From Dysidea avara (Eukaryota; Porifera; Demospongiae; Dictyoceratida; Dysideidae): a stretch of 64,000 bases of DNA. Position numbers and translations under genes: made by a program. This document shows positions 3,837 to 58,590 of this stretch, piece by piece (position 1 is the stretch's first letter; each line of letters begins with the position of its first letter). The notes beneath the pieces are model-generated. The model saw only the letters and a program-made list of their open reading frames with translations. It was not told the origin of the DNA and did not search any database. The stretch covers positions 2,749,445 to 2,813,444 of the forward strand of contig NC_089276.1 in assembly GCF_963678975.1 (NCBI RefSeq), written 5' to 3'.

Positions 3837-4660
3837 TTTTGACCTCACATTTTCATCCAAATATGGATGATGCTTCACTAAATCATCCATTTTGGATGAT
3901 TATTACTCATCTCTCTTATAGTTACATAAGCAAACATCATCCAAAAGTGGATGATTATTGCTTGATTCTCTATATAGTGAGTGCTTATGTAAGCAAATAT
4001 CATCCAAAAGTGGATGATATTTGCTTGATTCACTATATAGTGAGAGATGTATGCAAGAAGCATCCAAAATCGGATGTTTCTAACCATCCAATATTGGAAT
4101 GTAAACTTAGCCTTCCAAAATCGGATGTTTCTAACCATCCAATATTGGAATGTAAACTTTGCCTTCCAAAATCGGATGTTTCTTGCCATCCAATATTGGA
4201 ATGTAATTTCTGTCGTCCAAAATTGGATGTTTCTTGCCATCCAATATTGGAATGTAACTTCAGCCTTCCAAAATTGGATGTTTCTTGCCATCCAATATTG
4301 GAATGCAATTTCTGTCGTCCAAAATCGGATGTTTCTTGCCATCCTATATTGGAATGTAATTTCTGTCGTCCAAAATTGGATGTTTCTTGCCATCCTATAT
4401 TGGAATGTAATTTCTGCCTTCCAAAATTGGATGTTTCTTGCCATCCAATATTGGAATGTAATTTCTGTCGTCCAAAATTGGATGTTTCTTGCAATCCAAT
4501 ATTGGAATGTAACTTCCGCCTTCCAAAATCGCATGGTTTTTGCCATCCAATATTGAAATATAAGTTTTGCTTTCCAAAAATGGATGTTTCTTACTATCCA
4601 TTATTGGAATGTAAGTTTTGCTTTCCAAAATTAGATGGTTCTTGCCATCCAATATAGACT
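3837..4660 (+). repeat. 51-bp tandem array, left arm
   Basis: About 12 units, each with ATCCAATATTGGAATGTAA followed by a CCAAAATTGGATG variant. Because 51 is divisible by 3 and the unit lacks stops in several frames, the array yields long open frames on both strands (for example repeats of PKLDVSCHPILECNF). These are products of repeat arithmetic, not evidence for a protein. The outer 200 bp carry a longer-spaced variant with ATCCAAAAGTGGATGAT palindromes. Confidence 0.9.
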
Positions 4661-6035: not shown

Positions 6036-6582
6036 AAAATGTATTCCATTATTGGATGGCAAGAAACATCCAAATTTGGATGGCAAGGAATGTATTCCAA
6101 TATTGGATGGCAAGAAACATCCAAATTTGGATGGCAACAAATGTATTCCAATATTGGATGGCAAGAAACATCCAAATTTGGATGGCAACAAATGTATTCC
6201 AATATTGGATGGCAAGAAACATCCAAATTCGGATGACCAGAAATGTATTCCAATATTGGATGGCAAGAAACATCCGAATTTGGATGACCAGAAATGTATT
6301 CCAATATTGGATGGCTAGAAACATCCAAATTTGGATGGCGACAAATGTATTCCAATATTGGAGGGCAAGAAACATCCAAATTTGGATAGCGACAAATGTA
6401 TTCCAATATTGGATGGCAAGAAACATCCAAATTTGGATGATTGTTGCATAAATCTCTCACTATATAGAGATATGAGCAATAATCATCCACTTTTGGATGA
6501 TTTTGTTCCTTTGCAATAATCATCCAATTGTGGATGAAAATGTGAGGTCAATAAACATCCAAAAATGGAAACGAACCATACC
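6036..6582 (-). repeat. 51-bp tandem array, right arm
   Basis: About 8 units in inverted orientation relative to the left arm, reading ATTCCAATATTGGATGG then AAGAAACATCCAAATTTGG. The arm ends with the complement of GACCTCACATTTTCATCCA, matching the left terminus. Confidence 0.9.
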
Positions 6583-18885: not shown

Positions 18886-19513
18886 ATCCCATCCAAAAAC
18901 AGCTTATAGCTGTAAAAAAGGGCGCGTCCAAGTAAAGCAGAGTTAACTGTGACAAAAAGTAATGATATCATAATGTGGCCATGTGCGAGGTATGCAAGTT
19001 GTAAAATTAATATTAGCTAATCAGATAATACAATGTTATTGTTAAAGTGTTAATGAGAACTATGTGATGTTGCTATTTTTAAGTGTGTGAGCATCTTCAT
19101 AAATGCCACATAAATTTAATTCTCAATAAAGCAATGTGTATAGATTCTCTGATAGCAATAAATAGTTTGAGTTTGGCCACCTTTCCTTTGTTCGTAGCAT
19201 TGCCGTATACAGGAAAGACGGCCAAACTCAAACTATTTATTGCTATCAGAGAATCTATACACATTGCTTTATTGAGAATTAAATTTGTGTGGCATTTATG
19301 AAGATGCTCACACACTTAAAAATAGCAGCATCACATAGTTCTCATTAACACTTTAACAATAACATTGTATTATCTGATTAGCTAATATTAATTTTACAAC
19401 TTGCACACCTCGCACTTGGCCACATTATGATATCATTACTTTTTGTCGCAGTTAACTCTGCTTTACTTGGACACGCACTTTTTTTACAGCTATAAGCTGT
19501 TTTTGGATGGGAT
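18886..19513. mobile_element. Long hairpin element (about 628 bp)
   Basis: Starting ATCCCATCCAAAAACAGCTT and ending with its complement, the two arms of about 300 bp are nearly identical, with a short loop near 19180-19215. The two 72-codon open frames on opposite strands are mirror products of the same arm. No target duplication longer than a few bases is clear. Confidence 0.85.
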
Positions 19514-19833: not shown

Positions 19834-20476
19834 TTAGTGGCATGCAACTGCAGTCAACTACCACCCATTTTAACTAGTAAACCCTTAATAACACTTTGCC
19901 TTTCATCTTGTACTGCATTAAAACGATCAAGATACTCTATTAGAGCAGTCACAAAACAGCTGTAACACAGCAATTAATATTTAGCATAGTTACAACTTCT
20001 GCTTAGCATCGGATTGTATAGTTTAAATTACTAGCTACTTACAGACTTTACAATATAAAAATATGGCACTAGTAGAAATGTGACTGTTCTATTAGAGTAT
20101 CTCGATCTACTTCAAGCATTGACTAGAAGCTACGCCCCTGCCAAGAGATCTTGTGAAATGAAATGAGAATAGTAAGGAAAAGGTAAGTATGTACAGAGAC
20201 AATAGAAGGGCACGTAATTATGTCCTGTTGTAAATAAACGCCTTTAAAATGTATATTACTACTAAATAAGCGCACAAGAATAGATTTTTGAGGCTGTTGT
20301 CTCGAGGGGTCCGCCACGATTCGGAATCACGTCGAAGACCTCAGGAATCACTGGAATCAATCAAGGAATCATGGAATTATGGGAATCTGAAGCGGAATCA
20401 ACTTTGTAATTAGAAATATTTTGAAATAAATGTTATGAAAATTATATCGTAAATTACCGTTTAACACAGTATAACA

Positions 20477-20697
20477 CAGTGGCGGATCCAGGATGGGGCA
20501 TTTGGGGCAAATGCCCCCCCCCTTCAAGAAATTGCTTACAAGATCGATATACTCTAATAGAGCAGTCAATTACTGTAATAAAGCAGTCACAATGTTCATG
20601 AGGCAGTGTAGCTTACCTATGAAGCTACAAATAGGATTTTATTTTACATAACAGACGTGATATAGTAGGTAAGGATAACTAGCTATTATTGTTGTGA

Positions 20698-20732
<35 letters not shown>

Positions 20733-20823
20733 GTCTTCAACTGGTTTTCAGCAAGTTTTTTTGGTCTTCAACTGTTTTTCAGAAAGGTGCCCCCCCTCTT
20801 TCGAAACTCTGGATCCGCCCCTG
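20477..20823 (+). mobile_element. MITE, CAGTGGCGGATCC family, duplication TAACA
   Basis: The ends are CAGTGGCGGATCCAGG and CTGGATCCGCCCCTG, with TAACA on both sides (20472-20476, 20824-20828). The interior has a poly-C run, the 20-nt module, and a poly-T followed by repeated GGTCTTCAACTG. It sits inside the left inverted-pair copy. Confidence 0.92.
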
Positions 20824-21179
20824 TAACACACTCATAAGCTAAAGATGCTAACTCTCACTTGTTTTGCACCTGGTTTTACACTTTGTGTATACGCCTACGT
20901 GTATTACAGTGAGTGTTCCTGTGCGTTTCTAGTGAGGTTTAAGTCTTCGCGAGTGAATGCGAGCCGTCGCAGAAGCAGCTAACTACAGCCACTATATACT
21001 AGCTAATTCATTCTCCGTCAGCTGGCTGTTGGATCGAGGTTTCCCGGATTCCAGAACATCCTGTAATCTAACAATTTTCAATAACAGCTCCTACAAGTTC
21101 TCAGTGGGGCCCGGATCCGGTGTTCCCAACGAGACTTATACTAACCCTTAGCTAACTAGCTTGTTAATGAGTTGCAATA

Positions 21180-22623
21180 CATTCTTACTATAATTATTGC
21201 AGAACTCATATGGGTGAGTATATTACAATATAGATGTAAAATCATGAGGCTACAAATATAAGCTATAAAAATAAATTACAATGTAATATGTTTCAGAAGT
21301 TCCTTAAAAGTATCTATATTGTCACAATTTATATCACTAGGTAGAGTGTTCCACAATCAAATTGAAGCAGGAAAGAAACTGTATTTATAAGAATCAATAG
21401 CTGTGTCTGGCTGTATAAATTTAAGTTCACTACTTCTGGTATACCTTGATCTATGAGCTATATAATCAGGAAGTGATACATTCGCAATGCTATGAATAAT
21501 TTTATGGAACATCTGAAGCCTTAAATGTTTGAAATGAGTTTCAATGGTGCTCGAGTTAAGACGTGATAACATGTTTGATACACTGCTGGTTTGATATTAA
21601 TCATTCATTACAAAGCGAGCTGCACATCTTTGCACAGACTCAAGTTTGTTTTTGACCGTCTGCTGTAAGGAGCCCATGCTGCAGCTGCATATTCCATTGT
21701 GGGCTTGACGTAAGTAAGAAACAGGTCGATTCTTTGATTTTACAGGAGCAGTTTGCAAAATTTCTCCTCACAAAACTTAATACAGAGTTTTCCTTTTTGC
21801 ACACATTGTCCACATGTTGGTTAAAAGATAATTTTGAATCAATTGAGACTCCCAGGTACTTGGCACACTGAACCACAGTAAGTTGTTCTCCATGAAGGTG
21901 GTAACTGGAGTATATAGGGTTTCGTTTAAGAGTTATAGATACAACCACACATTTGTCAACACATAGTTCCAATATCTGTAAATCATCTTGCAAATCTTTA
22001 ACATCTGTTAAACTATCAATTCTCCTATATAGAATGCAGTCATCAGCGTATAAGCGACAAATAGAACTTAATTCGTTAGTGATATCGATTTGATTGATTG
22101 ATTGATTTTTAAATTAGCCTCAAGTCAGTCGGCAATGCCGTTCTTCCCTGACTGAGGAGGAAACACAAAAATAGCATACATATACACATATAAACTACAA
22201 CAGCACACACACAGACTGAACAAAAAATTACAACACACACATAGCACATACAAAACAATTAAGCAAACAATTTACAAACATAAAAATCATCAACAAATTT
22301 TACACAAATAAGAAAATAAATCGTCCTGAAAAGTTGGAGATGTTAACATGTCGTTAGGAACTGCATTCCACCAGTGGGCAGCTTGAGATCTAAAATGCTT
22401 TTGAGTAAAAGAAACTCTACATCTTGGTGGCTGTGCAAATAGCTGTGTAGTATGAGTAGCATATTGATATCATTTATGTATGTAAAAAATAGCAGAGGCC
22501 CTAGTACAGAACCTTGTGGGACACCACTCAAAACATCACAGGGGGTGGAAGTGCAACCACCACACACAACACTCTGTGTACGTCCAGTCAGGAAAGATGT
22601 GATCCAGTTTAAGGTCTTTCATC
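21180..22623 (-). pseudogene. LINE with reverse-transcriptase core, interrupted by another LINE
   Basis: Minus strand, from 22623 downward: [18 protein letters not shown], then the RT motif [14 protein letters not shown] and YINDI. A 377-bp insertion (22088-22464) follows. Coding resumes with TNELSSICRLYADDCILYR, so YADD, the catalytic site, lies just after the break. Next come the KYLGVSIDSKLSFNQH motif, a region like RRNFANCSC, a frameshift, and the C-terminal FKHLRLQMFHKIIHSI segment. It is 5'-truncated and has stops. LINE reverse transcriptases copy their own RNA at a nicked target. Confidence 0.88.
22088..22464 (-). mobile_element. Nested 5'-truncated LINE 3' end
   Basis: It carries only the last codons of a LINE, with an [15 protein letters not shown] reading, plus its 3' UTR, and ends in a TTGA/ATTG microsatellite tail near 22090. 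TGATATC flanks it on both sides (near 22080 and 22465). It lies within the RT domain of the older LINE. Confidence 0.85.
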
Positions 22624-23113
22624 AGGGTTAGCTAGTGTTGTGACGGTGTCCACTGACACTTTTGTCAGACGCAGAAATATAGAGCTGCCTGCCCAGTAAT
22701 GATAAAATAAATAAATAAAAATAGGCTATTGCCAGCGAATTTGCAGCGGCTCGAGTCCATGCCGGGTGGAACTTAAAATGACTTCGGTACTCACCAGTAG
22801 GTTCAGCAGAGGTAGCTAAAGTGATACACTGTGATAGTCACCATTCTGGCTCGCCTATAGTACAGAATCCATTCTATGGAATCGTGGAATCAACTTGGAA
22901 TTACAGAATCAGCCTTGGAATCAGCCGGAATTATTAGAATCATATGGAATTATAGGAATCCCTTTTGGAATTAGACGGAATAAAGGAATCGCGAGGAATC
23001 GCTGGCAGAATCAGAGGAATCAGAGGATTCAACGTTCGGAATCTAGGAATCAACTGGAAGTACGAGGTGATTCCGAATCACGTCGATCATAATCCTGAGT
23101 GGCGGACCCCTCG

Positions 23114-25843
23114 TCCTCAGTCGACCTAGAGGCCAAATACAAATCCCAGATTGTTGTTTTTCGCAATTCTCGCTTGGCATGTAGGGCAACGTATCTTTAA
23201 ACTGTTCTAAAAGTTTCGTTCAGATTGAAACATAAGTTTTCGAGAATGGCTAGTTTGAAATTTGAATTTTGTCGCCCCCACGTAATTTGCTCTCTAAGAA
23301 TTTTACTCGGAATTTAAAGAATGACGCAAAGCACAACTGCGGTCACTGGGTATTGATGAACTGGCGCTCTATGTAGTTAATCAGTACATATAGCCACAAA
23401 GAAGTGTGCTGCCATAGATTATAGTCCACAGATATAATCTAGACTATGGTGCTACATACCATCGTTCGTTTTTAAATTTGAATTTAGTCGCCCCCACCGT
23501 GGCGCGGTTTAAAGAATGACACAGAGTACAACTGTGGTTACCAGTTGTTGACACAAGCTGCGAGTAATTAGCACTTGTAGCTAGCCAATTGTCACCATGC
23601 ATTATTGCATTTTACAGCACCCCCACACAAAAATTACACATGTAATTGCAACATACAGATGACACATGAATACCAAACACTTTTCACAACAATAATGTAA
23701 GAATTGTACAATAATGACTGTAATATAACTGCTATGAAAATGTTTTCCAGTGGCCCGCCATGGTAGCAAGTCTCACATGACGGCATGTATATTCATCCAA
23801 ACACAATGGGAGTAACAAGTAAGTATGATGACAAGTTGACATGACTCCATTTGTAGAATCCAGATGAGTGGGTGTTGCTCCAGTATGTCTAAACAGTTAA
23901 CAAACATTCCTGTTATAAATACGTGCTAGAGTTGCAATATAATAGTATAGTATTTAAATGCAACAATACATAGTCTCCATTGCATCACTATCAAACTACA
24001 CTAAGTGGAGGATATTGTTGCATCTCTAGTATGTACACTCTATCAGTACAACCTGTCTTAATGGCCACCAGTATAGAAAAACAACCTCTCTTGAAAAGCC
24101 AATTCCAATTGAGAATTTATACACTGTTACCTGTTTAGTGAGTGAAGGTGGCAATAAACAAGTTCCACCATAATTTATACACGTGATGTGATCCTGTATA
24201 TTCTGTCAGTGGATGAGATCCACTTGGCCAGGACAAAATGTGACTCAAATGTCCTGGATGATCCATACTCAACCCACTTATGACCCAGTGGCACAATGGA
24301 ACTGACTATTTATAGAGAATACAATTATATTTATTTCTAAGATGTGTGGATGTGTGGACACATTACAACACATTACATGTACATACAAGACATGCTACGT
24401 ACTGTTTTAGCAATTCAAGTCACCACATTATGTACGGACCAGTCAACAATGCTTCATAGTGCCCATCAGTAAACCTGAAGAAAAGTTACGAAACATAAAA
24501 ATTCACATAAGTACAATGAAGCCTCATTAATATGGCCAGCTGTGGAACCAAAAAATTTGGCCTGAATAACAAGGTGGCCTTATTAATGAGGTCATAAAGT
24601 ACTGCTTAGCTATATTTGGGATCTACTAGAGGTGGCCAATATAATGAGGTGGTCTTATTAAAGAGGTGGCCACTAAGTGAGGTTTCACTGTACATACAGT
24701 TCACAATCACAATGGTGAACAATATTAATGGTTAACAATATACACTGAAACCTGCAGGTCACTTCTTGTGGAAGATTGCTCTCTACACTAAATGACACAT
24801 TCAGAGATTGTATTTAGATGGATGATACAGTAACACATTGTGACTTCAATACTCGTGATGTGTCAATGCTAGGTAGCAACCATATACATGGCACTGCCAA
24901 TGCACAACATCACACTTGCTCGCACACACAATTTTGCTCAAGATTTTACAAATTGATAATTAAGAGGTGTGGAAACTAGCTGTTCACTCGAAAGACTGTG
25001 TGGCAGCTGTTTTCCTTCTGTACAAGTGGCCACCAAGACAGGTCCACTGTGGATGAAAGCCAGGCATTAGATATTTGGTATTTCATGTGTTGAAGGCATT
25101 CCAGGGCTTCCGGTAGTCTCAAATCTCACCACAGTTTACCTCAGGCAGTGTTGTGGTCACCACTAAACCACCGGAATGCTGTGCTATGTTCATCTTATGC
25201 TTGGCTACTGTATTGTAGAACTGAAATGGATACTCTGAAAAATATATCCTATGGATAATGACTTCATCACTTTCTTCATCAGGAGCTTATAAGGACCAAT
25301 AGTGAAACTTTTACACTTTGGGCTGACAGCTAACTGCCTAAGCCTTAAGCAGTGCCTTTGGTGCTCTAACAGATTGGCTGCCCCCTTGCTGCCAGCACTC
25401 ACTGTCTCATATGCTGTCACACACTAAATCCATCTCTATAGCCAGTTAGAACAGCATGCTTCTTACCTTTTTTAAGGCCGCAAAATGCAGCCACCTCTTT
25501 AAAAAGCTAGGTCAGAAATGTTTTGTCCCTACGGCCTGAATAATGACCAGTTTTCACCGTACTATTAGTGATTAGTGATCATGGAGGATTATTTATTAAG
25601 ATACTAAGATATACAAACGCTACAACCTCTAAATATAGCAGTAAATTTTTTACCCTGGTCCAATGTCTCGTAATAATTGTGAGAGACTCTACTGTGACAA
25701 ATACATGTTTATCATGATATGTGCTAATCGCCTTTTTACAATTAAGTTTTACAACACAAATACATGTATAGTTAAACTCACCAATTGTGACTAAATCCCT
25801 TCAACACGAAAAGACAAGTAATGAGACAACCTTGGAGACAACA
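23114..25843. other. Spacer between the inverted copies (inverted segment)
   Basis: This 2.73-kb single-copy segment has no recognised gene. Two related segments (about 23255-23345 and 23470-23550) share GTCGCCCCCAC and AAAGAATGAC. A short TIR element lies at 24512-24693. The flanking TE duplications indicate that this interval was inverted relative to its surroundings. Confidence 0.6.
24512..24693. mobile_element. Short TIR element with TACARTGAARCCTC ends
   Basis: The left end TACAATGAAGCCTC and the right end GAGGTTTCACTGTA are inverted. The interior repeats GGTGGCC and TATTAATGAGG-like phrases. The TIR style resembles Tc1/mariner/pogo MITEs. The family is assigned by resemblance only. Confidence 0.6.
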
Positions 25844-26340
25844 CGAGGGGTCCGCCACTCAGGATTATGATCGACGTGATTCGGAATCACCTCGTACTTC
25901 CAGTTGATTCCTAGATTCCGAACGTTGAATCCTCTGATTCCTCTGATTCTGCCAGCGATTCCTCGCGATTCCTTTATTCCGTCTAATTCCAAAAGGGATT
26001 CCTATAATTCCATATGATTCTAATAATTCCGGCTGATTCCAAGGCTGATTCTGTAATTCCAAGTTGATTCCACGATTCCATAGAATGGATTCTGTACTAT
26101 AGGCGAGCCAGAATGGTGACTATCACAGTGTATCACTTTAGCTACCTCTGCTGAACCTACTGGTGAGTACCGAAGTCATTTTAAGTTCCACCCGGCATGG
26201 ACTCGAGCCGCTGCAAATTCGCTGGCAATAGCCTATTTTTATTTATTTATTTTATCATTACTGGGCAGGCAGCTCTATATTTCTGCGTCTGACAAAAGTG
26301 TCAGTGGACACCGTCACAACACTAGCTAACCCTGATGAAA

Positions 26341-27690
26341 GACCTTAAACTGGATCACATCTTTCCTGACTGGACGTACACAGAGTGTTGTGTGTGGTGG
26401 TTGCACTTCCACCCCCTGTGATGTTTTGAGTGGTGTCCCACAAGGTTCTGTACTAGGGCCTCTGCTATTTTTTACATACATAAATGATATCAATATGCTA
26501 CTCATACTACACAGCTATTTGCACAGCCACCAAGATGTAGAGTTTCTTTTACTCAAAAGCATTTTAGATCTCAAGCTGCCCACTGGTGGAATGCAGTTCC
26601 TAACGACATGTTAACATCTCCAACTTTTCAGGACGATTTATTTTCTTATTTGTGTAAAATTTGTTGATGATTTTTATGTTTGTAAATTGTTTGCTTAATT
26701 GTTTTGTATGTGCTATGTGTGTGTTGTAATTTTTTGTTCAGTCTGTGTGTGTGCTGTTGTAGTTTATATGTGTATATGTATGCTATTTTTGTGTTTCCTC
26801 CTCAGTCAGGGAAGAACGGCATTGCCGACTGACTTGAGGCTAATTTAAAAATCAATCAATCAATCAAATCGATATCACTAACGAATTAAGTTCTATTTGT
26901 CGCTTATACGCTGATGACTGCATTCTATATAGGAGAATTGATAGTTTAACAGATGTTAAAGATTTGCAAGATGATTTACAGATATTGGAACTATGTGTTG
27001 ACAAATGTGTGGTTGTATCTATAACTCTTAAACGAAACCCTATATACTCCAGTTACCACCTTCATGGAGAACAACTTACTGTGGTTCAGTGTGCCAAGTA
27101 CCTGGGAGTCTCAATTGATTCAAAATTATCTTTTAACCAACATGTGGACAATGTGTGCAAAAAGGAAAACTCTGTATTAAGTTTTGTGAGGAGAAATTTT
27201 GCAAACTGCTCCTGTAAAATCAAAGAATCGACCTGTTTCTTACTTACGTCAAGCCCACAATGGAATATGCAGCTGCAGCATGGGCTCCTTACAGCAGACG
27301 GTCAAAAACAAACTTGAGTCTGTGCAAAGATGTGCAGCTCGCTTTGTAATGAATGATTAATATCAAACCAGCAGTGTATCAAACATGTTATCACGTCTTA
27401 ACTCGAGCACCATTGAAACTCATTTCAAACATTTAAGGCTTCAGATGTTCCATAAAATTATTCATAGCATTGCGAATGTATCACTTCCTGATTATATAGC
27501 TCATAGATCAAGGTATACCAGAAGTAGTGAACTTAAATTTATACAGCCAGACACAGCTATTGATTCTTATAAATACAGTTTCTTTCCTGCTTCAATTTGA
27601 TTGTGGAACACTCTACCTAGTGATATAAATTGTGACAATATAGATACTTTTAAGGAACTTCTGAAACATATTACATTGTAATTTATTTTT
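26341..27690 (+). pseudogene. LINE with RT core, plus-strand copy in right arm
   Basis: Same LINE as at 21180-22623, here in forward orientation. [14 protein letters not shown] is at about 26430-26470, the nested insertion at 26493-26870, and YADD at 26907-26918. The KYLGVSIDSKLSF motif is near 27095-27135, and the C-terminal segment lies at 27385-27600. GATATCA occurs at 26486-26492 and again at 26871-26877 on either side of the nested piece. Confidence 0.88.
26493..26870 (+). mobile_element. Nested LINE 3' end in right copy
   Basis: Counterpart of 22088-22464, ending in an ATCAATCAATCAATCAA tail and flanked by GATATCA. Confidence 0.85.
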
Positions 27691-28133
27691 ATAGCTTATA
27701 TTTGTAGCCTCATGATTTTACATCTATATTGTAATATACTCACCCATATGAGTTCTGCAATAATTATAGTAAGAATGTATTGCAACTCATTAACAAGCTA
27801 GTTAGCTAAGGGTTAGTATAAGTCTCGTTGGGAACACCGGATCCGGGCCCCACTGAGAACTTGTAGGAGCTGTTATTGAAAATTGTTAGATTACAGGATG
27901 TTCTGGAATCCGGGAAACCTCGATCCAACAGCCAGCTGACGGAGAATGAATTAGCTAGTATATAGTGGCTGTAGTTAGCTGCTTCTGCGACGGCTCGCAC
28001 TCACTCGCGAAGACTTAAACCTCACTAGAAACGCACAGGAACACTCACTGTAATACACGTAGGCGTATACACAAAGTGTAAAACCAGGTGCAAAACAAGT
28101 GAGAGTTAGCATCTTTAGCTTATGAGTGTGTTA

Positions 28134-28488
28134 CAGGGGCGGATCCAGAGTTTCGAAAGAGGGGGGGGCACCTTTCTGAAAAACAGTTGAAGACCAAAAA
28201 AACTTGCTGAAAACCAGTTGAAGACCAAAAAAAAAAAAAAAAAAAAAAAAAGGTCACAACAATAATAGCTAGTTATCCTTACCTACTATATCACGTCTGT
28301 TATGTAAAATAAAATCCTATTTGTAGCTTCATAGGTAAGCTACACTGCCTCATGAACATTGTGACTGCTTTATTAGAGTAATTGACTGCTCTATTAGAGT
28401 ATATCGATCTTGTAAGCAATTTCTTGAAGGGGGGGGGGGGGGGGGGGGGGGCATTTGCCCCAAATGCCCCATCCTGGATCCGCCACTG
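28134..28488 (-). mobile_element. MITE, CAGTGGCGGATCC family, right-arm copy
   Basis: Reverse complement of 20477-20823, with TGTTA (complement TAACA) on both sides. Its poly-G run is longer than the matching poly-C run in the left arm. Confidence 0.9.
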
Positions 28489-28707
28489 TGTTATACTGTG
28501 TTAAACGGTAATTTACGATATAATTTTCATAACATTTATTTCAAAATATTTCTAATTACAAAGTTGATTCCGCTTCAGATTCCCATAATTCCATGATTCC
28601 TTGATTGATTCCAGTGATTCCTGAGGTCTTCGACGTGATTCCGAATCGTGGCGGACCCCTCGACTGAGGACGACTGAAACTTCGTTTGGTGCTGAAACTA
28701 AGACTGT

Positions 28708-36683: not shown

Positions 36684-39600
36684 GGCCACTGCAATGAGAT
36701 AACTTGTTTCTCATCAGCTTCTCATCGAATAACAGATGCGGGCGGGCGGGTTATCTCATTATTTGTAAGTCACATAAAAACTTCATACAGTAGCTGACAC
36801 ATAAAGAAAAATTGTATAATACACTATTACAAAAGCAGTATGATCTATTTTTTTTATTTTAGGTTTTTGGCAGTGTGCACATTGAGGGTAAAACGCTGAG
36901 TCCACATCAACTTCAACTTCTTCAGCACGGTAAATACATATTGGAGTATAGCCTGCTGAATAGTACAGCTTCTCAATAGGGTCATAGCAATTGATATTGC
37001 GCACATATACTTCTGAAAAGGGCTCTGGAAGTTCCATATCCTGTAATGAAGAGCCACATGTATAAGAATAGTTGTCAAGCAATGACTCCAGTGATGTGCG
37101 TTGTGTTTTCTTTAACTTTGTTTTACAGTACAACAGACGCCACATATCACATTCCTCACACAACATCATCATGTCAACATTCTTTACATGTTGCACACTT
37201 GCAGAAAATGGTAGTGTTTTTTAAGGTGTCTTGACATGGAGAGATGGTCGATGTTCTTCAGTGGTAACTTGACCAAATATCTGGCTGAAACTTAAATAAT
37301 GGTTATCACTTCCAGGTGTAGGATCTGGCAATGAATTAAGTTGTTTAAATATTTCTTCAGATAATCGAGGTGGCTTACATATATTACATTCTAAAGAGCC
37401 ACATTTACGGATCTCAAAAAAGTAATGCCGCTTCCTGCAGCAATGTTGCATGAACTCTTTCAAGTTTGGGTAATCAGGCAGGGATTTTTTGTTAATAGAT
37501 GTATTTATTATTGTGTCATCAATTTGCTTTAGCACAGTCAAAGACTGGTCCATAGCTTCTGCAGTAGCAGCATTAAAAACATTAAAACTTTCTTGCTTTA
37601 GTTGAAGTCTTGATAGGACTTGTGCAAGACAGATTTTTGGACCAGGAACTGAATAAATTATGGCCTCTCTCAGTGTGGGATGCTTAGCAGCTGCAGCTCT
37701 AATTTCCTTCATATTTCCAGCTTTTCCCAATAACTGTTCACTGTCATCATCCATTCCATTCCGTGCGAGTCCAACACATTGCAGTCCCAGGTTGATGACT
37801 GACATAATGCGCTCCACTGGATTTCTCCATGAATGGTAATGGGCTGTCCTGGCTGCACAAAGATAATCTAGATCTAATTGTAGAAATAATGAAATCAGAG
37901 ATAACTGAACTGCAATAAAAGTAAGCCGGTGGTCAGGACCCCCATCAGTATATAAAAACAAAATAGGCTTTGACTGAACATCTGTTTCGATCAAAGAAAT
38001 AAGTTCAGAAGCATGCCTTATTGGGCTGGATGGCTCAAAAGTACCTTCTTTTAAACTAATATGGACTTTACCTGAATACCAAGAGCCAGAAATATCATCT
38101 GGGATAGCAACTTTAAAAAAGACTGATGGTATAAAGCTGAGCTTTGTAAAGTCATGATCAGCCACCAAAAACTCTGAGCCAGGTGCTGTGAATACACGAC
38201 GCCCTCGCTCAGCTGCTGCTACTGGGACATTGGGCTCGCCAATTTTTATCCTATGTTTGTCATCGAGGCAATAAAATAAGCAGTGTTCCCTAAAAAGAAC
38301 TGCATATTCTCTTAAATATCGAAAAACACCAGCTGCGTAATGACAATCTGGGTGATCTTTTCTGAACTGACGCTGTTGAACTTTGAAGCGTACTTTAAAA
38401 CGGCCTGTGTGGTGGAGGGCTCTTAGAGAATTGGGTGCTTTGGGCCAAAACTGTAATCTAATCCATTCTACACTTGGAATTTAGTGTCTGCTGGACATCT
38501 TGCTGCTACTTGATCTCTAAAGTCACGGATTGATATTGCACTTGCAATGTGTGTAATATTTGTATGACGACGATCATCCACAGCTGTACCAACTGATTCT
38601 TCAAGTAATTTACTACATTCATCCCAAAACACGTCATATTGAGACTTCATGCCAGAATTATTATGCCGGAGGTCCATTACTATAGATGGATCTTCCATTT
38701 CAATTGCTTGCTTCACTCGTTCGTCAATTTCGGCCTGATCAGTTGTGTCACTACTGGAGCAGTCACCTGTAAGATCTTTATAAAAATACCTTAAAACTGC
38801 TGGCTTAACTGTATGTGTTACCAGCCCAAACTTTCGAATAAATTCTTGAATCATCATCCTTGTGTGATAAACTGGAATATGCTTTTTAATTTCTTCAATG
38901 ACCACTTGGCTGTTTTTGAGTGCTTGATCAAGACAATTGTCTGGTACATGCCAAACAAAATATGCATTTCCACAATTATTACCACTTGAGTAGATGAGTA
39001 ATAATGCAGAAACAGATAAGCCAGCTTTAAGCTTCTTAACCATGTAATACTTTTTCTGGTTATCAGAGGGTAGATAAGAATGCAAATCAATTAGGGAATA
39101 AGGGCCTGCTTTTGAGAGCTGTTCACAGATATCTTGAAGCTCAGTGCAAACACTCCCAATTGGCTTTAAATACAAAATATCCATACTTTTGTCAATGGAT
39201 CTCCAGGGTGTACCAGATGAATGAATAGTTTTCATGACTTTGCTTTTATCTTGAATTTCACATGCATAAAGATGCAAGGTGTTTGCCAGCAGTTCACAAC
39301 TTTGCCTCATAGACGCCCAATTTTCTCTTGAAAAATAATTAGCTTGCAATAATCTAAATAATTTTGTACTCAAGCTTTGAATGATATCAGCAGACATATT
39401 ACCTGCTGAGCATTTGCGATGTTTTGATAATTCAGGAGCATTGAATCCCTGAAAATCTTTAAAACAAGCAGGAATTTGATATCCATGAGCAGAAATGGTA
39501 CTTTGATGCCAGTCTATGTACCATAAAACCTCACACAGTGATTTTACAAAATTGGTTCCTGATGAATTTACCTCATTAGAATTCCAATGAAGTTTTTTCA

Positions 39601-40906
39601 ATTCTAGGTAATATATGATTTCATTATATAACTTATCCTTTTTGTTTCTCTCTTGGATACATGATGGAACCTTTTTCCTTGATATTTCTAACTGAGATTG
39701 TTTCAAAATGTCAAATGCATTTGGACGTTGAACTTCCACCACACATACATCTTCTGAAGTATCAACAAAAAACTTGATAAACTTTCCAAACTCTTTTGCT
39801 ACTGAATTTACTGCTAAATCGGGGTTAGCCTTTAAAGATAAGGATTCCTTGCTGTTGCCAACAAATACTTCTGCGATCTGTGAATTGAAAATCTTAATAA
39901 AAAAGTAGCTAATTTGCAGTATATATTTATGCCCATATTCAACAAAATCCACCTAACCAGAGAAAAAAGTTTTATTAATGCCATGCAGTAAAAGATTTTC
40001 GTTCTATATGGCCATTATAGTATAAAAGCATCAAATAATCAAGTCTGCTTATGCATCATGGCAGCCATAATGTATGCCCTTTTCAGTATAAGCGCCCCTG
40101 GCATGTTTTGGGTTCTTTTGAGGCCACTGGGTTGGCTAGACATGGCTGGGTGGATCAATAAAATGCCATGTATTCAAGTGATTTCAATATCCCATAAACT
40201 AAATCCCACCTGGATTTTGTGGCTTTGAGAATAGCTACAAAGACCATATTTGTAACCTAACACAATATACACTGTATACTTTCCCTATACCATATTCTCC
40301 ATCTTAGCTCCAGTGTCCTTTAATATCATACAATATAGCTTTTAGGCTCCTTGGCTATGGGTAAACACCTCGAACAGGCTCTGCCTTCTGTGTCCACCCT
40401 CCAGTGCCTAACTGGTAAAGTAGATAAGAAGTAAGAAGAAGCTAGAAGCAACCATAGATCGACACTGCATAAAAGGGCCACCTATAGACAATACGGCTAC
40501 TGAAGTTTTTATAGGCTCTTTATAATGATTGCATGCAGTCAATTATTAAACTTCAACAGTGGCGACCATGCATATGATCATTTCAATTCCAAAATACGCT
40601 CATATTTTTAAAACAATATAGCTAGCTAGCTAGAACTCACCTGTGGTGCTTCAGTGGTGGTTGATGAGCTAGACAGCTTCGGAACCAACACAGAATTGAA
40701 AAATTCACGAAAGGTAGCTGTATCCGAATGGGATTGAACGATTTCCCAAGGAAGCAGCGATTTTCTACGAGATAAATCCACTACCGTCACACACAAGAGA
40801 GCCATGCTGTTAATACCAACCTTATCACGTGCGATAATGGGTGCGCATGTGCATAACTAAAAATTTGATGCGGGCGGTTGATGAGAGTTATCTCATTGCA
40901 GTGGCC
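36684..40906 (-). mobile_element. 4.2-kb DNA transposon with TAA duplication
   Basis: The termini are GGCCACTGCAATGAGATAAC and its complement, flanked by TAA at 36681-36683 and 40907-40909. A subterminal GATGCGGGCGG motif lies near both ends. The paralogous site at 60674-60676 has the same flanks joined through one TAA, proving the limits. It codes on the minus strand for one large protein with a D-D-E pattern. Three-base duplications occur in PIF/Harbinger (TWA) and, as I recall, Zator. The protein does not look like a Harbinger transposase. Confidence 0.92.
36783..40805 (-). CDS. Probable DDE transposase, two exons, one frameshift and one stop
   Basis: Exon 1 is 40805-40641 (55 codons, from ATG). 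Its CAG|GTGAGT donor joins in phase 0 to exon 2 at 39877 after a TTCAATTCACAG acceptor. Exon 2 runs to a TAG at 36783, giving about 1,086 residues. Two lesions interrupt it: a missing base in an A-run near 38478, and an in-frame TAA at 37221-37223 after which the same frame stays open. A candidate catalytic triad is D in DDKHRIKIGEP (about residue 593), D in YTDGGPDHR (about 699) and E in WRNPVERIM (about 743). The spacing of 106 and 44 residues is normal for DDE nucleases. Further on are possible zinc ligands: CGSLECNIC, then LCEECDMWRLLYC and CAHCQKPK. The DxKxxxIG and DGGxxH...SWxNxxER layout recalls ISAzo13/TP36 and Zator. Superfamily placement is inference. Confidence 0.75.
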
Positions 40907-42140: not shown

Positions 42141-43370
42141 GTTATTCTGTAGGGAATTCAGCTACAAACAAGTCACCCAGAAGAAAGATCTGCCAGAAGA
42201 AAGTACCTAATAGAGAGTTCAGCTACAAAGAAACCATCATGTAGAGAGTTCAGCTCAAACAATTTGCCCTGTAGAGAGATCAGCTAGAAGAAGTTACCTT
42301 GTAGAGAGTTCAGTTACAAAGAAACAATCATGCAAAGAGTTCAGCTGCAACAAATCATCCAGTAGAAAGTTCCGCTATGAACAGATCACACTGTAGAGAG
42401 TTCAGTTAGAAACAAGTCATCTTGTAAAGAGATCAGCTAGAAGAAGTCACATTGTAGAGAGTTCAGCTACAAAGAAACCACCATGTAAGAGAGTTCAGCT
42501 GCAAACAAATAACCTGTAGAGAGTTCAGCTAGGAACAAGTCACCCTGTACAGAGATCAGCTAGAAACAAGTCACCCTGTAGAGAATTCAGCTACAAATAA
42601 ATCACCCTGTAGAAAGATCAGCTAGAAGAAGTTACCTTGTAGAGAGTTCAGCTACAAACAAATCACCCTGTAGAGAATTCAGATAGAAACAAGTCACCCT
42701 GTAGAGAGATCAGCTAGAAACAAGTCACCCTGTAGAGAGTTCAACTAGAAGAAGTTACATTGTAGATAGTTCAGGTACAAAGAAACTACCATGTAGAGAG
42801 TTCAGCTGCAAACAAATCGCCCTGTAGAAAATTCAGCTACAAACAAACCACCCTGTAGAGAGTTCAGCTACAAACAAGTCACCCTGTAGAGAGATCAGCT
42901 ATAAAAAAATCATCCAGTAGAGAGATCAACTAGAAGGATAACCTTGTATTTGTATTTTAAGGATAAAGGCTTATGCCTGTACATCCATAAACAAAATTAA
43001 TAATTATTCTGTACTTAGCTATTCTAATTACTATACAAAATCAAATAAGCAATTACTGTAGTGTCTGTCTAGCAGTGTTTTAAAATCATTGACAGAGGGA
43101 GAATCAACAATAGATTGGGGTAATGAATTCCAGTCATTGATTACTCTGTTACTATAAAAATTAGATCTTGTATACGAATTAGTGTGATGTTTGAATAATT
43201 TCCTTGTGTGACCTCTTGTTACAGTAGAAGTGGATGGGGTAAATAAATGATTTTCTATATCATAACTGCCTTTGAGAATTTGGTACAAATATATCAAATC
43301 TACGGTGTTGTAAAGATGGTATGTTTAGATATCTTGTAGAGAGGTCAACTACAAAGAAATCACCCTGCTT
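42140..43370 (+). repeat. 31-bp tandem array, copy 1
   Basis: The unit is close to TAGAGAGWTCAGCTACAAAC followed by AAATCACCCTG. About 26 diverged units run to about 42945, where a LINE end interrupts; a last unit lies at 43330-43370. Some units have AGAAGAAGTTACC or AGAAACAAGTCACC variants, giving a higher-order pattern. Confidence 0.88.
42945..43325 (-). pseudogene. 5'-truncated LINE C-terminus inside the array
   Basis: The minus strand reads MIYLYQILKGSYDIENHLF, then TRGHTRKLFKHH, FYSNRVINDWNSLPQSIV and NDFKTLLDRHY, ending at TAG near 43031. This is the usual C-terminus of CR1/L2-like LINE ORF2. The flanking satellite units show that it landed within the array. Confidence 0.85.
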
Positions 43371-49955: not shown

Positions 49956-50069
49956 CCCTACGAAGTCGGTTGAATCTGTATGTAACCAATCATTTTCACC
50001 TTATTATTAACGCGTATACAGGCTAAAACCTTCGCTAAATCAGTACAGCCATCTACTTGTGGTTCCAGG

Positions 50070-51550
50070 CGAGGGGTCACCAACTGCTTCGAAATCTCGT
50101 ACACCTCCAGTAAAATCCTGCCTGAAATACGAAATCTTATGCTGTTATCGTGATTCTGATTCTATACTCGTTCTGGTACCGTAGCTTACACTCAACTGCT
50201 CCTGCACAAAAGTAAGAATGAAATCCGATGTTCCGCTCCGCTTCGGATTTGTATAATCAAGTTGTGGAAGCCACACAAAACCAGGAGCTGTGGGAAAGAA
50301 GCCGCACAAACCAGGAGAGAATGAAATCCGATGTTCCGCTCCGTTTCGGATTTATATTATTAAGCGAGTTGTGGAAGCCAAATAAAACCAGGAGTTGTGG
50401 GAAAGAAGCCAAATAAACCAGGAGAGAATCCATGCAAACTGTCCAAAAGTATATAGATAAAATCCGTTGTTCCGCTCCGTTTCGAATTTGTATTAAGCGA
50501 GTTGTGGAAGCCAAACAAAACTAGGAGCTGTGGGAAAGAAGCCACACAAAACAGGAGAATCCATGCAGATTGCTCCTGCACAAACGTAAGAATGAAATCC
50601 GATGTTCCGCTCCGCCTCGGATTTGTATCAAGCAAGTTGTGGAAGCCAAACAAAACCAGGAACTGTGAGAAAGAAGCCATACAAAACCAGGAGAGAATCG
50701 AATTAAGAATGAAATCCGATGTTCCTCTCCGTTTCAGATTTGTATTAAGCGAGCTGTGGAAGCCAAACAAAACCAGGAGCTGTGGGAAAGAAGCCATACA
50801 AAACCAGGAGAGAATCGAATTGAGAATGAAATCTGATGTTCCTCTCCGTTTCAGATTTGCATTAAGCGAGTTGTGGAAGCCAAACAAAACCAGGAGTTGT
50901 GGGAAAGAAGCCGATTTATATTAAGCGACTTGTGGAAGCCAAACAAAACCAGGAGCTGTGGGAAAGAAGCCAAACAAAACCTGGGGAATTCATGCAAACT
51001 GCTCCTGCACAAAAGTAAGAATGGATTTACTTAGCAAACTGCAAACTTAGCAACATAAACTTAGCAAAACTTCATAAACTTAGCAACACACCAACTACAA
51101 AAGCAACTTAAGCATACACTGAGATGCTCCTGGTTTTGTGGGGTTTCACACCAGATAGAGCTTTGACAGTTGCTCCTGGTTTTGAGGGGTTTCGCACGGG
51201 ATTTCCCCTCCTTTTCCTGGTTTATAGGGCTTCAGCTGCGAGTTGCTCCTGGTTTTGTAAGGTTTCATTTAATAGTTATGCCAAGGCTTTACTCCTGGTT
51301 TTATATGGCTTCACAATTCCTCTCAATTTCGTGAGGCCTTGCTCTTACATGCCTGCTGAACTTCTGTTTCTTTCTCTCACTACTTTTTGGTGATTTCAGA
51401 ACTTATCACTCTACACCAACCTGTAATTTAAAATCAGATTTTGCAGCTCTCGTTCGATTTTGCGAAATCTTTTGAAACCCGTGAAATCTTGAGAAATTTG
51501 TTTAAGATTTTAAAATCCGTACCACTTTTTCGTGAGTTGGTGACCCCTCG
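50070..51550. mobile_element. 1.5-kb TIR element, duplication GTTCCAGG
   Basis: The ends CGAGGGGTCACCAACT and AGTTGGTGACCCCTCG are inverted. GTTCCAGG stands at 50062-50069 and 51551-51558. The host sequence without the element exists at about 41011-41025. Its first nine bases equal those of the inverted pair at 20303 and 25844. The interior is mostly repeats: CAAAACCAGGAG units at 50270-51010 and the complement, CTCCTGGTTTTGT, at 51125-51340. Confidence 0.9.
50215..51010 (+). repeat. Tandem array of roughly 120-bp units
   Basis: Repeats of GAAATCCGATGTTCCGCTCC, a GTTGTGGAAGCCAAACAAAA segment and AGGAGCTGTGGGAAAGAAGC occur six to seven times with internal deletions. The array causes the overlapping open frames on both strands here. 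Confidence 0.85.
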
Positions 51551-51558
51551 GTTCCAGG

Positions 51559-53634: not shown

Positions 53635-53755
53635 TAGAGCGTTTTCATTTCCATGGTAACGAATAATGACGTAAAGGCACACCTACGGTCGCCATATTGT
53701 TGAACTACATTGCGGTAGTGATTGTTGTTTTTACAGCGTTTGTATTGTGAATACA

Positions 53756-55259
53756 ATGGTTAACTGTACTATTGTTGGCTGTTCTAGTGACAGTAGCAAA
53801 CCTGTAAGGAACATTTGCTCGTTTCACAAGCTACCAACCATAATCATGCACCAAGGACCTCAAATGGTGGAAATAACGACGGAAAGGAGAAGAGTTTGGT
53901 TATCAGTCATTTCTAGAGACAATTTGCCATGTTTAGAAAATGTTTCTGTTTGCAGTAATCATTTTGAAAGCGGTAAGTGCTACAAACTGGGTGTGTTGTG
54001 CTGTACTAATTCATTTTATTTAGGTAAACCAGCATATGTTATGAAAACGTTTGATGTTGACTGGACTCCTTGCATTAACCTAGGGCATGACAAGGTCAAT
54101 GTGGGTACTTTGCAAGCAGCTAGTGATAGGGCAATACGAACTGAACAGAGAAGGCAAAGAATGGAGGAAGCTGCAACCTCATCTTCTGTTGCCTCTTCCA
54201 GTGTTGGTGCACAAGTATCAGTGGAAGATACTGGCTGTGTGTTTGTTAATGAGGGTACTCAAACTGATCAAGGAGTGTTGTGTCACAGTAAAACGGTGCA
54301 AATGACAACTCCACCTCAGACTGTGATGTTGGGGTCCAGACAGATGACTGGAATTTTTTCGATGAGAAGGTTTTTTTTGTCAGATGATTCCAAGGTACAT
54401 TACTACACTGGGCTGACCAAGTGCGCACTACTACTGTCAACATTTGAGTTTGTAATGACTCCCTTTTGTAATGGAGAGAAACGAGCATTCTACTGGCGTT
54501 AATTCCTCTTAGTTCTTTTAAAGTTGAGGCTTAATCTGGGACTGCAAAACCTAGCATATACATTCAATGTATCACTAGCTACTGTGTCACGTCCATTCCA
54601 TGCAACACTAGATGTTATGATGGTACGTTTGCAGTGGCTTATAAATGGCCACACAGAGAGCAGCTGTGGAAAACTATGCCAAACTGTTTTCGTACCTGCT
54701 ATGGAACTAAGGTAGTGGCAATTGTTGACTGTTATGAGATAAAGATTGAAACACCATCTCATTTAGTAGCTAAGTCAGCAACATGGTCGCAATATAAACA
54801 TGCTAACACTGCTAAAATGTTCATCTCAATGTGTCCACAAGGAGTAACTACCTTTGTTTTATGTGCCTGGGAGGAAGAGTAAGTGATAAACACTTTACTG
54901 GCAACGGTGGCTTTCTTTCAAAATTATTGCAGGGAGACATTGTCCTTGCTGACCGTGGTTTTGACATTGATGAGGATGTTGCCAGAATGCAGGAAACTTT
55001 ACAAATACCCGGATTCACACGTGGATGTGTGCAGTTGTCTCCACAAGATCTTGAGAAAACTCACCAACTGGCAAATGTCTGTATACACATTGAGAGGGTG
55101 ATAGGTGCTACGAGGCAGAGATACTCTATTCTGACGAGTTGTATCCCCATAGACTTTGTGAAACCTAAGGCAGATGGAGAAAAAGCTACTATAGACAAAA
55201 TTATAATTATTTGTTCAGCATTAAATAATTTATGTAAATCTGTAGTTCCTAGTAATTAA
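53756..55259 (+). pseudogene. THAP-domain DDE transposase pseudogene
   Basis: The N-terminus MVNCTIVGCSS...VCSNHFESG carries the C2CH ligands of a THAP DNA-binding domain (residues 4, 9, then C and H about 60 residues later). A serine-rich linker follows. The helix-turn-helix region FLLVLLKLRLNLGLQNLAYTF and VSLATVSR comes next. The DDE_4-type core then reads VVAIVDCYEIKIETPSH (first D), WSQYKHANTAK, GDIVLADRGFDI (second D) and HIERVIG (final E). Lesions: TAA at 54500-54502 within the linker/HTH, a shift near 54650, and a missing base after CAW near 54873 where the GGRVSDKH motif changes frame. The end is at TAA 55257-55259. It is inactive as it stands but recently so, since all motifs remain. 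Confidence 0.88.
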
Positions 55260-56133: not shown

Positions 56134-58590
56134 TAGAGATTCAGAGCATTACAAGTCACACTGAAGAAAGTTCAGCTATAAACAAGTCATGCACCCTGTA
56201 GAGAATTCAGCTACAATTAAGTCACTCTCTAGAGAATTCAGCTACACAGAATTCAGCTACACACAAGTCACTGTGGAGAAAGTTCAGCTACAAACAAATT
56301 ACCCTTTAGAGTGATCAGCTACAAACAAAACACTTTGTAGAGTGTTCAGCTACAACAAATCAACCTTTAGAGCGATCAGCAATGAACGAATCAACACAAT
56401 CTACGTGTAGAGAGATCAGCTACAACCAAATCACCCTGTAGAGAGATCAGCTACAAACAAATCACCCTGTAGATAGTTCAGCTACAAACAATTCACCCTC
56501 TGGAGAGTTCAGCTACAACCAAATCACCCTGTAGAGAGTTCAGCTATAAACAAATCACCTTGTAGAGAGTTAAGCTACAAACACATAAACCCTGTAGAGA
56601 GATCAGCTACAAACAAATCACCTTGCAGTGAGCTCAGCTACAAACAAATTACCCTGTAGAGAGATCAGCTACAAACAAAACACCGTGTAGAGACTTCAGC
56701 TACAAACAAATCAACCTGTAGAGATTTCAGTTACAAACAAATCACCCACTGTAGAGAGATCAGCTACAACCAAATCACCCTGTAGAGAGATCAGCTACAA
56801 ACAAATCACCTTGTAGAGAGTTCAGTTACAAACACATCACCCTGTAGAGAGATCAGCTACAAACAAATCACCTTGCAGTGAGTTCAGCTACAAACAAATT
56901 ACCCTGTAGAGAGATCAGCTACAAACAAAACACCTTATAGAGACTTCAGTTACAAACAAATCAACCTGTAGAGATTTCAGTTACAAAAAAATCACCCACT
57001 GTAGAGAGATCAGCTACAACCAAATCACCCTGTAGAGAGATCAGCTACAACCAAATCACCCTGTAGAGAGATCAGCTAGAAACAAATCACCCTGCAGAGA
57101 GATCAGCTATAAACAAATCACTCTGTAGAGAGATCAGCTACAAACAAATCACCCTGTAGAGAGTTCGGCTACAAACAAATCACCCTGTAGAGAGATCAGC
57201 TATATAGACACTAGACACAATATAGGGAATTCAGTTACAAGCAAATCACCCTGTAGAGAGTTCAGTTACAAACACATCACCCTGTAGAGAGATCAGCTAC
57301 AAACAAATCACCTTGCAGTTAGTTCAGCTACAAACAAATTACCCTGTAGAGAGATCAGCTACAAACAAAACTCCGTGTAGAGACTTCAGTTACAAACAAA
57401 TCAACCTGTAGAGATTTCAGTTACAAACAAATCACCCACTGTAGAGAGATCAGCTACAACCAAATCACCCTGTAGAGAGATCAGCTACAAACAAATCACC
57501 CTGCAGAGAGATCAGCTACAAACAATCACTCTGTAGAGAGATCAGCTATAAACAAATCACCCTGTAGAGAGATCAGCTATATAGACACTAGACACAATAT
57601 AGGGAATTCAGTTACAAGCAAATCACCCTGTAGAGACTTCAGTTACAAACACATCACCTTGTACAGAGATCAGCTACAAACAAATCACCTTGCAGTGAGT
57701 TCAGCTACTAACAAATTACCCTGTAGGGAGATCGGCTACAAACAAAACACCTTGTAGAGACTTCAGCTACAAACAAATCAACCTGTAGAGATTTCAGTTA
57801 CAAACAAATCACCCACAGTAGAGAGAGCAGCTACAACCTAAATCACTCTGTAGAAAGATCAGCTACAAACAAATCATCCTGTAGAGAGTTCAGCTACAAA
57901 AAAAAATCACCCTGTAGACAGATCAGCTAGAAACACATCACCCTGTAGAGAGTTCAGCTACAAACAAATCACCTTGTAGAGTGATCAGCTAGAAGCAAGT
58001 CACCTTGTATAGTGTTCAGCTACAAAGAAACCATCCTGTAGGGAGTTCAGCTACAAATAAATTACCCTGTAGAGAGTTCAGCTACAAACAAATCACCCTG
58101 TAGAGTGTTCAGCTAGATAAAAGTCACCCTACAGAGAGACCAGGTCACCCTATAGAGAGATCAGCTAGAAGAAGTGATCTTGTATAGAGTTCAGCTACAA
58201 AGAACCCACTCTATAGAGAGTTCAACTAGAAATAAGTTACCCTATAGAGAGATCAGCTAGAATCAAGTCACCCTGTAGAGATTTCAGTTACAAACAGATC
58301 CTGTAGATAGTTCAGCTAGATACAAGTCACCTTGTAGAGAAATCAGCTAGAGGAAGTCATCTTGTAGAGAGCCAGCTAGAAACAAGTCACCTTGTAGAGA
58401 GTTCAGTGACAAAGAAACTATCCTGTAGAGAGTTCTTCTACAAACAAATCGCCCTGTAGAGAGTTCAGATGTAAACAAATCACCCTGTAGAGAGTGCAGC
58501 TACCTACAAATCAACCTGTAGAGAGTTTAGCTACATTTCAAGTCCCTTAGTAGAAAGATCAGCTGCGAACAAGTTATCCAGTAGGGAATA
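56134..58590 (+). repeat. 31-bp tandem array, copy 2 (about 2.4 kb)
   Basis: About 75 units close to CCTGTAGAGAGATCAGCTAC plus AAACAAATCAC. A longer period shows at 56560-57790: a block with CCTTGCAGTGAG, AGAGACTTCAG, CACCCACTG and, in two blocks, TATATAGACACTAGACACAA recurs about every 300-400 bp, so part of the array grew as larger blocks. Confidence 0.93.

What the first reader, a model, noticed from the sequence alone, without database searches (positions are those of the whole stretch)
20295..28670. Inversion between two TE copies, shown by exchanged 8-bp target duplications
Seen: left copy flanks are TGTTGTCT / TCCTCAGT; right copy flanks, read in the same element orientation, are TCCTCAGT / TGTTGTCT. 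Neither copy has matching flanks, yet each 8-mer occurs exactly once at each copy. Flipping 23114-25843 back gives both copies perfect 8-bp duplications. Known: recombination between inverted TE copies inverts the DNA between them and swaps flanks in just this way, as described for Galileo elements in Drosophila. Inference: this sponge-like genome carries such an inversion, and the 2.8-kb element transposed twice as a composite including its nested MITE and LINEs.
Basis: partly seen in the sequence, partly recalled or inferred. Interest (0 to 1): 0.88.

Follow-up and report, generated by a model that had tools for sequence, protein, structure and literature searches.

The report
Transposon-made small inversion in sponge-like genome
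Two nearly identical, oppositely facing copies of a jumping gene have traded the short target duplications beside them, which shows that the 2.7 kb of DNA between them was flipped, most likely when a single copy jumped abnormally or when it jumped a short way and then recombined with its twin.

Summary
Two inverted copies (20303-23113, 25844-28662) differ by 2 substitutions and 3 homopolymer-length changes. Each is flanked by two different 8-mers, exchanged between the copies; flipping 23114-25843 back gives each a perfect duplication. In the host assembly (551 Mb) one 501-bp piece of the element gave 140 candidates, of which 40 were scored. I fetched the 38 that are not the pair. Of 35 single copies with readable flanks, 34 have exact 8-bp duplications and one differs by one base. 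None of the 38 carries the pair's nested MITE; its exact right junction occurs only twice in the genome, both here; a substitution at the opposite end is private to the pair among 26 aligned copies. The pair therefore descends from one MITE-bearing element, and 'transposed twice as a composite' is not needed. Exchanged flanks do not by themselves prove recombination: one aberrant transposition using ends of two sister copies (hybrid element insertion) gives the same order with identical, non-chimeric copies, as seen. A local jump followed by inverted-repeat recombination is nearly as likely. Assembly mis-orientation is unlikely but not excluded. A clean new example of a known kind of event.

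The parts
20295..20302 (+). 8-bp flank TGTTGTCT (t1), outer side of left copy
   Evidence: the reverse complement lies at 25836-25843
20303..23113 (+). Left copy of the 2.8-kb non-autonomous TIR element, 15-bp TIR CGAGGGGTCCGCCAC at both ends
   Evidence: 38 relatives fetched from the same genome
20478..20823 (+). Nested MITE in the left copy (borders approximate because of the short duplication at the insertion), private to this pair among the copies fetched
   Evidence: absent at this site in 38 of 38 other copies; uninterrupted site shown for L010; exact right junction occurs twice in the genome, both here
22346..22618 (-). Degenerate reverse-transcriptase (LINE-type) fragment, part of the family core
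   Evidence: Pfam RVT_1, E 2.3e-4, 21.4 bits, below the curated cut-off of 29.6; the core is present in the other copies
23114..23121 (+). 8-bp flank TCCTCAGT (t2), inner side of left copy
   Evidence: the reverse complement lies at 28663-28670
23122..25835 (.). 2.7-kb inverted segment (B)
   Evidence: flipping it, with the adjacent 8-mers, restores perfect duplications at both copies
25836..25843 (+). 8-bp flank AGACAACA (t1 reversed), inner side of right copy
25844..28662 (-). Right copy of the element, opposite orientation, 2 substitutions and 3 homopolymer indels from the left copy
28134..28488 (-). Same nested MITE in the right copy, at the same site (borders from the window self-comparison)
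28663..28670 (+). 8-bp flank ACTGAGGA (t2 reversed), outer side of right copy

Best explanation
A single MITE-bearing copy of a non-autonomous 8-bp-TSD transposon sat at one of the two sites. After DNA replication the transposase paired the left end of the copy on one sister chromatid with the right end of the copy on the other (hybrid element insertion, also called sister-chromatid transposition). It inserted this hybrid into a target about 2.7 kb away. The stretch between old site and target was inverted, and one element copy was left at each border. Each copy then has the old 8-mer on one side and the new 8-mer on the other. Shown: exchanged 8-mers, a MITE-bearing form found only here, near-identical copies without visible chimerism, intact ends, and a family that normally makes perfect 8-bp duplications. 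Inferred: the use of sister-copy ends, and that it happened in one step.
For: The model gives exactly the observed order A t1 E t2 B -t1 -E -t2 D. The literature criterion of identical rather than chimeric copies (PMC2775673, passages) is met: 2 substitutions in 2804 bases. Both copies share the private MITE at the left end, and an A at element position 2763 at the right end occurs in 2 of 26 aligned rows, the pair only. None of the 38 other copies fetched carries the MITE, and its exact right junction exists twice in the assembly. The family also shows a tandem dimer of two copies without differences, joined end to end with a 2-bp overlap and with unequal outer flanks (L021), which is hard to make without cleavage at ends of two different copies (inference; an assembly fault at L021 was not excluded). 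The three pairs with fewest substitutions among 26 aligned rows (0, 0 and 2) each lie on one chromosome, at most about 60 kb apart, as expected of local or sister-chromatid events; the next pair (4 substitutions) lies on two chromosomes.
Against: A local jump that kept both copies, followed by inverted-repeat recombination, leaves the same structure and the same near-identity. Inverted repeats of 2.8 kb at more than 99.9% identity (substitutions only) and 2.7 kb apart should be good substrates for recombination (own knowledge). A plain local pair exists in this family (L009/L010, about 60 kb apart, opposite orientation, 0 differences, each with its own matching duplication). No transposase was linked to the family, and no other haplotype could be read.
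Confidence: 0.47

Rival explanations
1. Local jump, then ectopic recombination. One MITE-bearing copy jumped 2.7 kb in opposite orientation during replication and both copies were retained. Later, crossing-over between the two inverted copies flipped the segment between them.
For: Gives the same order. A local pair with unexchanged duplications exists in the family (L009/L010). Recombination between transposon copies in opposite orientation is a described cause of inversions with exchanged duplications (PMC2775673, passages; PMC8225341, passages).
Against: Needs two events where one suffices. No chimeric signal was found: derived markers at both ends are shared by both copies. But copies this similar could not show a crossover point, so the absence of a signal does not exclude it.
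Confidence: 0.41
2. Assembly error. The true genome has two copies with matching duplications, and the 2.7-kb segment was placed in the wrong orientation because the flanking 2.8-kb repeats could not be told apart.
For: A mis-oriented segment gives exactly the same string.
Against: The assembly is of chromosome scale (15 contigs of 14-65 Mb, window on the 42-Mb C5; the 16 shorter contigs sampled, of 93, are 1-95 kb). The window has no N and carries a 2.4-kb tandem array and two separately resolved repeat copies, which suggests long reads (inference). Reads were not available.
Confidence: 0.08
3. Two independent insertions from a third MITE-bearing donor elsewhere, followed by recombination.
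For: The family is numerous (140 first-look candidates, 40 scored).
Against: No third MITE-bearing copy was found: 0 of 38 other copies fetched, and the exact right junction occurs only at the pair (a copy with a change in those 31 bases would be missed). The donor would have to be lost or missed, and both insertions would have to land 2.7 kb apart.
Confidence: 0.03

Closest known systems
Galileo-mediated inversions of Drosophila buzzatii, e.g. 2z3 (PMC2775673, passages seen)
   Same: Two copies of a TIR element in opposite orientation at the two borders, with exchanged target site duplications.
   Different: There the duplications are 7 bp, the copies were shown to be chimeric and the inversion is a chromosomal polymorphism. 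Here the duplications are 8 bp, the copies are identical save 2 substitutions and 3 homopolymer lengths, and only 2.7 kb is inverted.
Hybrid element insertion of P elements / sister chromatid transposition of maize Ac/Ds (PMC2775673, PMC8225341, PMC3744419; passages seen)
   Same: Predicted product in PMC2775673 is an inversion bordered by two copies of one element, strikingly similar to the recombination product but with identical copies.
   Different: The P and Ac/Ds cases cited there come from experimental genetics (recalled in part). Here the event is read from a natural genome, and no transposase or parental haplotype is in hand.
Reversed-ends transposition (maize; PMC8225341, passages seen)
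   Same: Transposase acts on ends of two copies and can invert a flanking segment.
   Different: That reaction starts from two linked copies, loses the segment between them and makes a new duplication at the inversion junctions. The flanks here are accounted for by two 8-mers, each present twice, with no need of a deletion.

Membership tests
Transposon-bordered inversion with exchanged target duplications | Two homologous copies in opposite orientation at the borders | tested here: met
Transposon-bordered inversion with exchanged target duplications | Target duplications exchanged between the copies, restored by flipping | tested here: met
   control: of 35 readable single copies 34 have exact matching duplications and 1 has one mismatch
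Transposon-bordered inversion with exchanged target duplications | Uninverted order found in another chromosome | not testable with these tools
   one assembly held; genome searches for the segment did not complete; joined flanks matched no uninverted order among the loci held
Ectopic recombination (NAHR) | Chimeric copies | tested here: inconclusive
   no chimerism visible, but the copies are too alike for a crossover to show
Hybrid element insertion | Copies at the borders derived from one element and identical | tested here: met
   private MITE and private substitution shared, 2 substitutions in 2804; not exclusive to this mechanism
Hybrid element insertion | Parental chromosome with a single copy at one site | not testable with these tools
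   no second haplotype in hand
Galileo / P superfamily | Related transposase and termini; 7-bp (Galileo) or 8-bp (P, recalled) duplications | tested here: inconclusive
   8-bp duplications are shown; no transposase was looked for genome-wide or linked to the family, so the superfamily is not assigned

The most novel reading that the evidence does not exclude
A natural hybrid element insertion, read from sequence. A nested MITE acts as a private marker showing that both border copies come from one element, so the inversion was made by the transposase itself in one step rather than by recombination. The same family's end-to-end dimer on another chromosome would be a second product of ends of different copies being used together.
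Probability: 0.45. Interest if true: 0.5.

Novelty: new member of a known kind. Interest (0 to 1): 0.38.

Why it matters
This locus shows why they do not suffice, and gives a marker (a private nested insertion) that limits the choice to mechanisms starting from one element. It also shows a TIR family in a probable sponge, with perfect duplications and near-identical neighbouring pairs, that appears to duplicate locally and to rearrange DNA on a scale of a few kilobases, where long-read population data could settle the mechanism.

Tried and rejected
Chance match of the 8-mers: rejected (about 2e-10; and 34 of 35 readable single copies have exact duplications). Fold-back (palindrome) assembly artefact: rejected, because the sequences beyond the two copies differ and the copies carry separate differences. 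Reversed-ends transposition: set aside because it would lose the segment between the starting copies and add a new duplication (PMC8225341, passages). Gene conversion as the sole cause: cannot exchange flanks (reasoning). Ends of the element in viral contigs: 0 matches; tblastn of a neighbouring ORF against phages: no match; both collections may leave out this genome's own records. Joined empty-site flanks against all loci held: each half found only its own place (the window and loci overlapping it), apart from a 73-bp, 90% match of the outer right flank in L055; the middle segment matched only itself. Literature: search listings. The phrase 'exchanged target site duplications' was in 2 papers, both on Drosophila. 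In one search, 65 papers held at least 3 of 4 terms; of the 10 listed none has a title about an inversion of this kind in a sponge. This is no proof of absence in print.

Full report
Observation. Left copy 20303-23113, right copy 25844-28662 in opposite orientation, all four ends with an exact 15-bp CGAGGGGTCCGCCAC. Flanks are TGTTGTCT / TCCTCAGT on the left copy and AGACAACA / ACTGAGGA on the right, i.e. the same two 8-mers exchanged. The copies differ at two substitutions (20575 and 20957 in the left copy) and three homopolymer lengths, all within the first 670 columns of the alignment; the remaining 2.15 kb is identical. Two exact 8-mer matches at fixed positions have a chance near 2e-10.

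Setting. The window is C5:2749445-2813444 of a 551-Mb assembly of 108 contigs. Contigs C1-C15 are 14 to 65 Mb and the 16 shorter ones sampled (of 93) are 1 to 95 kb. The window has no N. That it is a sponge is an inference: a neighbouring ORF has a named relative in Amphimedon queenslandica at 36% identity and a 99% match in an unnamed ENA record.

Family controls. A 501-bp piece of the element had 140 first-look candidates, of which the best 40 were scored; two of these are the window pair. I fetched the 38 others, in 37 loci, and eight of them again with wider flanks. These are the copies closest to the window's, not a random sample of the family. Two of the 38 form an end-to-end dimer (L021). 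Of the other 36, one (L038) has lost its left end. Of the 35 readable ones, 34 have exactly matching 8-bp flanks and one (L049) differs by one base (for L048 and L053, whose terminal repeats carry small changes, I matched the flanks by eye from the printed sequence). So the family makes clean 8-bp duplications, and besides the window pair only the dimer departs from the pattern. A related element in the same window, 50070-51550, with end CGAGGGGTCACCAAC, also has a perfect 8-bp duplication, GTTCCAGG.

One progenitor. In all 38 other copies element positions 176 and 522 are joined without the MITE, and the uninterrupted site is seen directly in L010. The exact right junction MITE/element (31 bases, no mismatch allowed) occurs twice in the genome, both in the window. 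The left-junction search did not complete. In the alignment of 26 rows (the pair and 24 of the 38; 14 were left out because they were longer than 2.7 kb or their ends were not found), a substitution at element position 2763 is private to the pair. Their two mutual substitutions compare with 4-6 to the four nearest other copies. Markers at both ends of the element are thus shared by both window copies: both come from one MITE-bearing element. The LINE-like pieces (RVT_1 fragment, weak) belong to the family core and were not picked up by this pair alone.

Mechanism. Worked through symbolically, three histories give the same final order: recombination between two insertions, hybrid element insertion from one insertion, and mis-orientation of the middle by an assembler. 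Delprat et al. (PMC2775673, passages, not the whole text; author name recalled from a citation seen) say that hybrid insertion and ectopic recombination are told apart by whether the border copies are identical or chimeric. Here they are identical apart from the few differences listed. I put them at 0.47 and 0.41. A tilt to the first comes from L021: two copies with 0 differences, joined end to end sharing the CG, outer flanks TCCGGGTC and CTAAAAAC. This looks like transposase cleavage at ends of two different copies followed by joining, i.e. the kind of end use that hybrid insertion needs; an assembly fault there was not excluded. The tilt is small, since L009/L010 (same chromosome, about 60 kb apart, opposite orientation, 0 differences, each with its own matching duplication) shows that ordinary local jumps happen too.

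Assembly error is given 0.08: the string cannot exclude it, but chromosome-scale contigs, the resolved 2.4-kb tandem array (56151-58587) and two separately resolved copies argue for long reads. No reads were seen.

What is known and what is new. Exchanged duplications at transposon-bordered inversions are known from Drosophila, and aberrant transposition from P and Ac/Ds (papers above, passages). This is a further case, with the useful feature of a private nested insertion as a lineage marker. It is not a new kind of thing.

Noticed in passing
L021 (G000:C9:26609149-26615640): End-to-end tandem dimer of the family: two 2493-bp copies with 0 differences that overlap by the 2 bp CG at the joint, outer flanks unequal (TCCGGGTC / CTAAAAAC). 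It looks like joining of ends cut from two different copies; an assembly fault was not excluded.
   Followed up: partly
L009 and L010 (G000:C13, about 60 kb apart): Two copies with 0 differences in opposite orientation on one chromosome, each with its own perfect 8-bp duplication: a plain local jump.
   Followed up: partly
50070-51550: A related element with terminal repeat CGAGGGGTCACCAAC and perfect 8-bp duplication GTTCCAGG (50062-50069, 51551-51558), filled with degenerate tandem repeats.
   Followed up: partly
about 22100-22475 (and its copy in 25844-28662): By eye: a piece of about 370 bp with a GATT repeat at one end interrupts the reverse-transcriptase remnant and is flanked by TGATATC on both sides, as a truncated LINE insertion inside an older LINE piece would be.
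   Followed up: no
18914-19484: Near-perfect inverted repeat, arms 281 nt, 96% complementary, 9 nt between them.
   Followed up: no
42147-42932 and 56151-58587: Two arrays of the same 31-bp repeat family (CTGTAGAGAGTTCAGCTACAAACAAATCACC), about 0.8 and 2.4 kb.
   Followed up: no
53675-55256: THAP-domain ORF followed by a DDE_Tnp_4 ORF (Pfam): probably a transposase of the PIF/Harbinger-like kind (label recalled).
   Followed up: no
37224-39952: Two adjacent minus-strand ORFs. The larger (38471-39952) matches a 735-aa protein, P0001, at 99%; the other is recognisable by eye further along the same protein. 63 proteins found, one named in Amphimedon; no Pfam hit for either ORF at E 0.01.
   Followed up: no
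4063-4655 and 6037-6439: Two 51-bp minisatellite arrays that are inverted copies of each other, about 80% alike.
   Followed up: no
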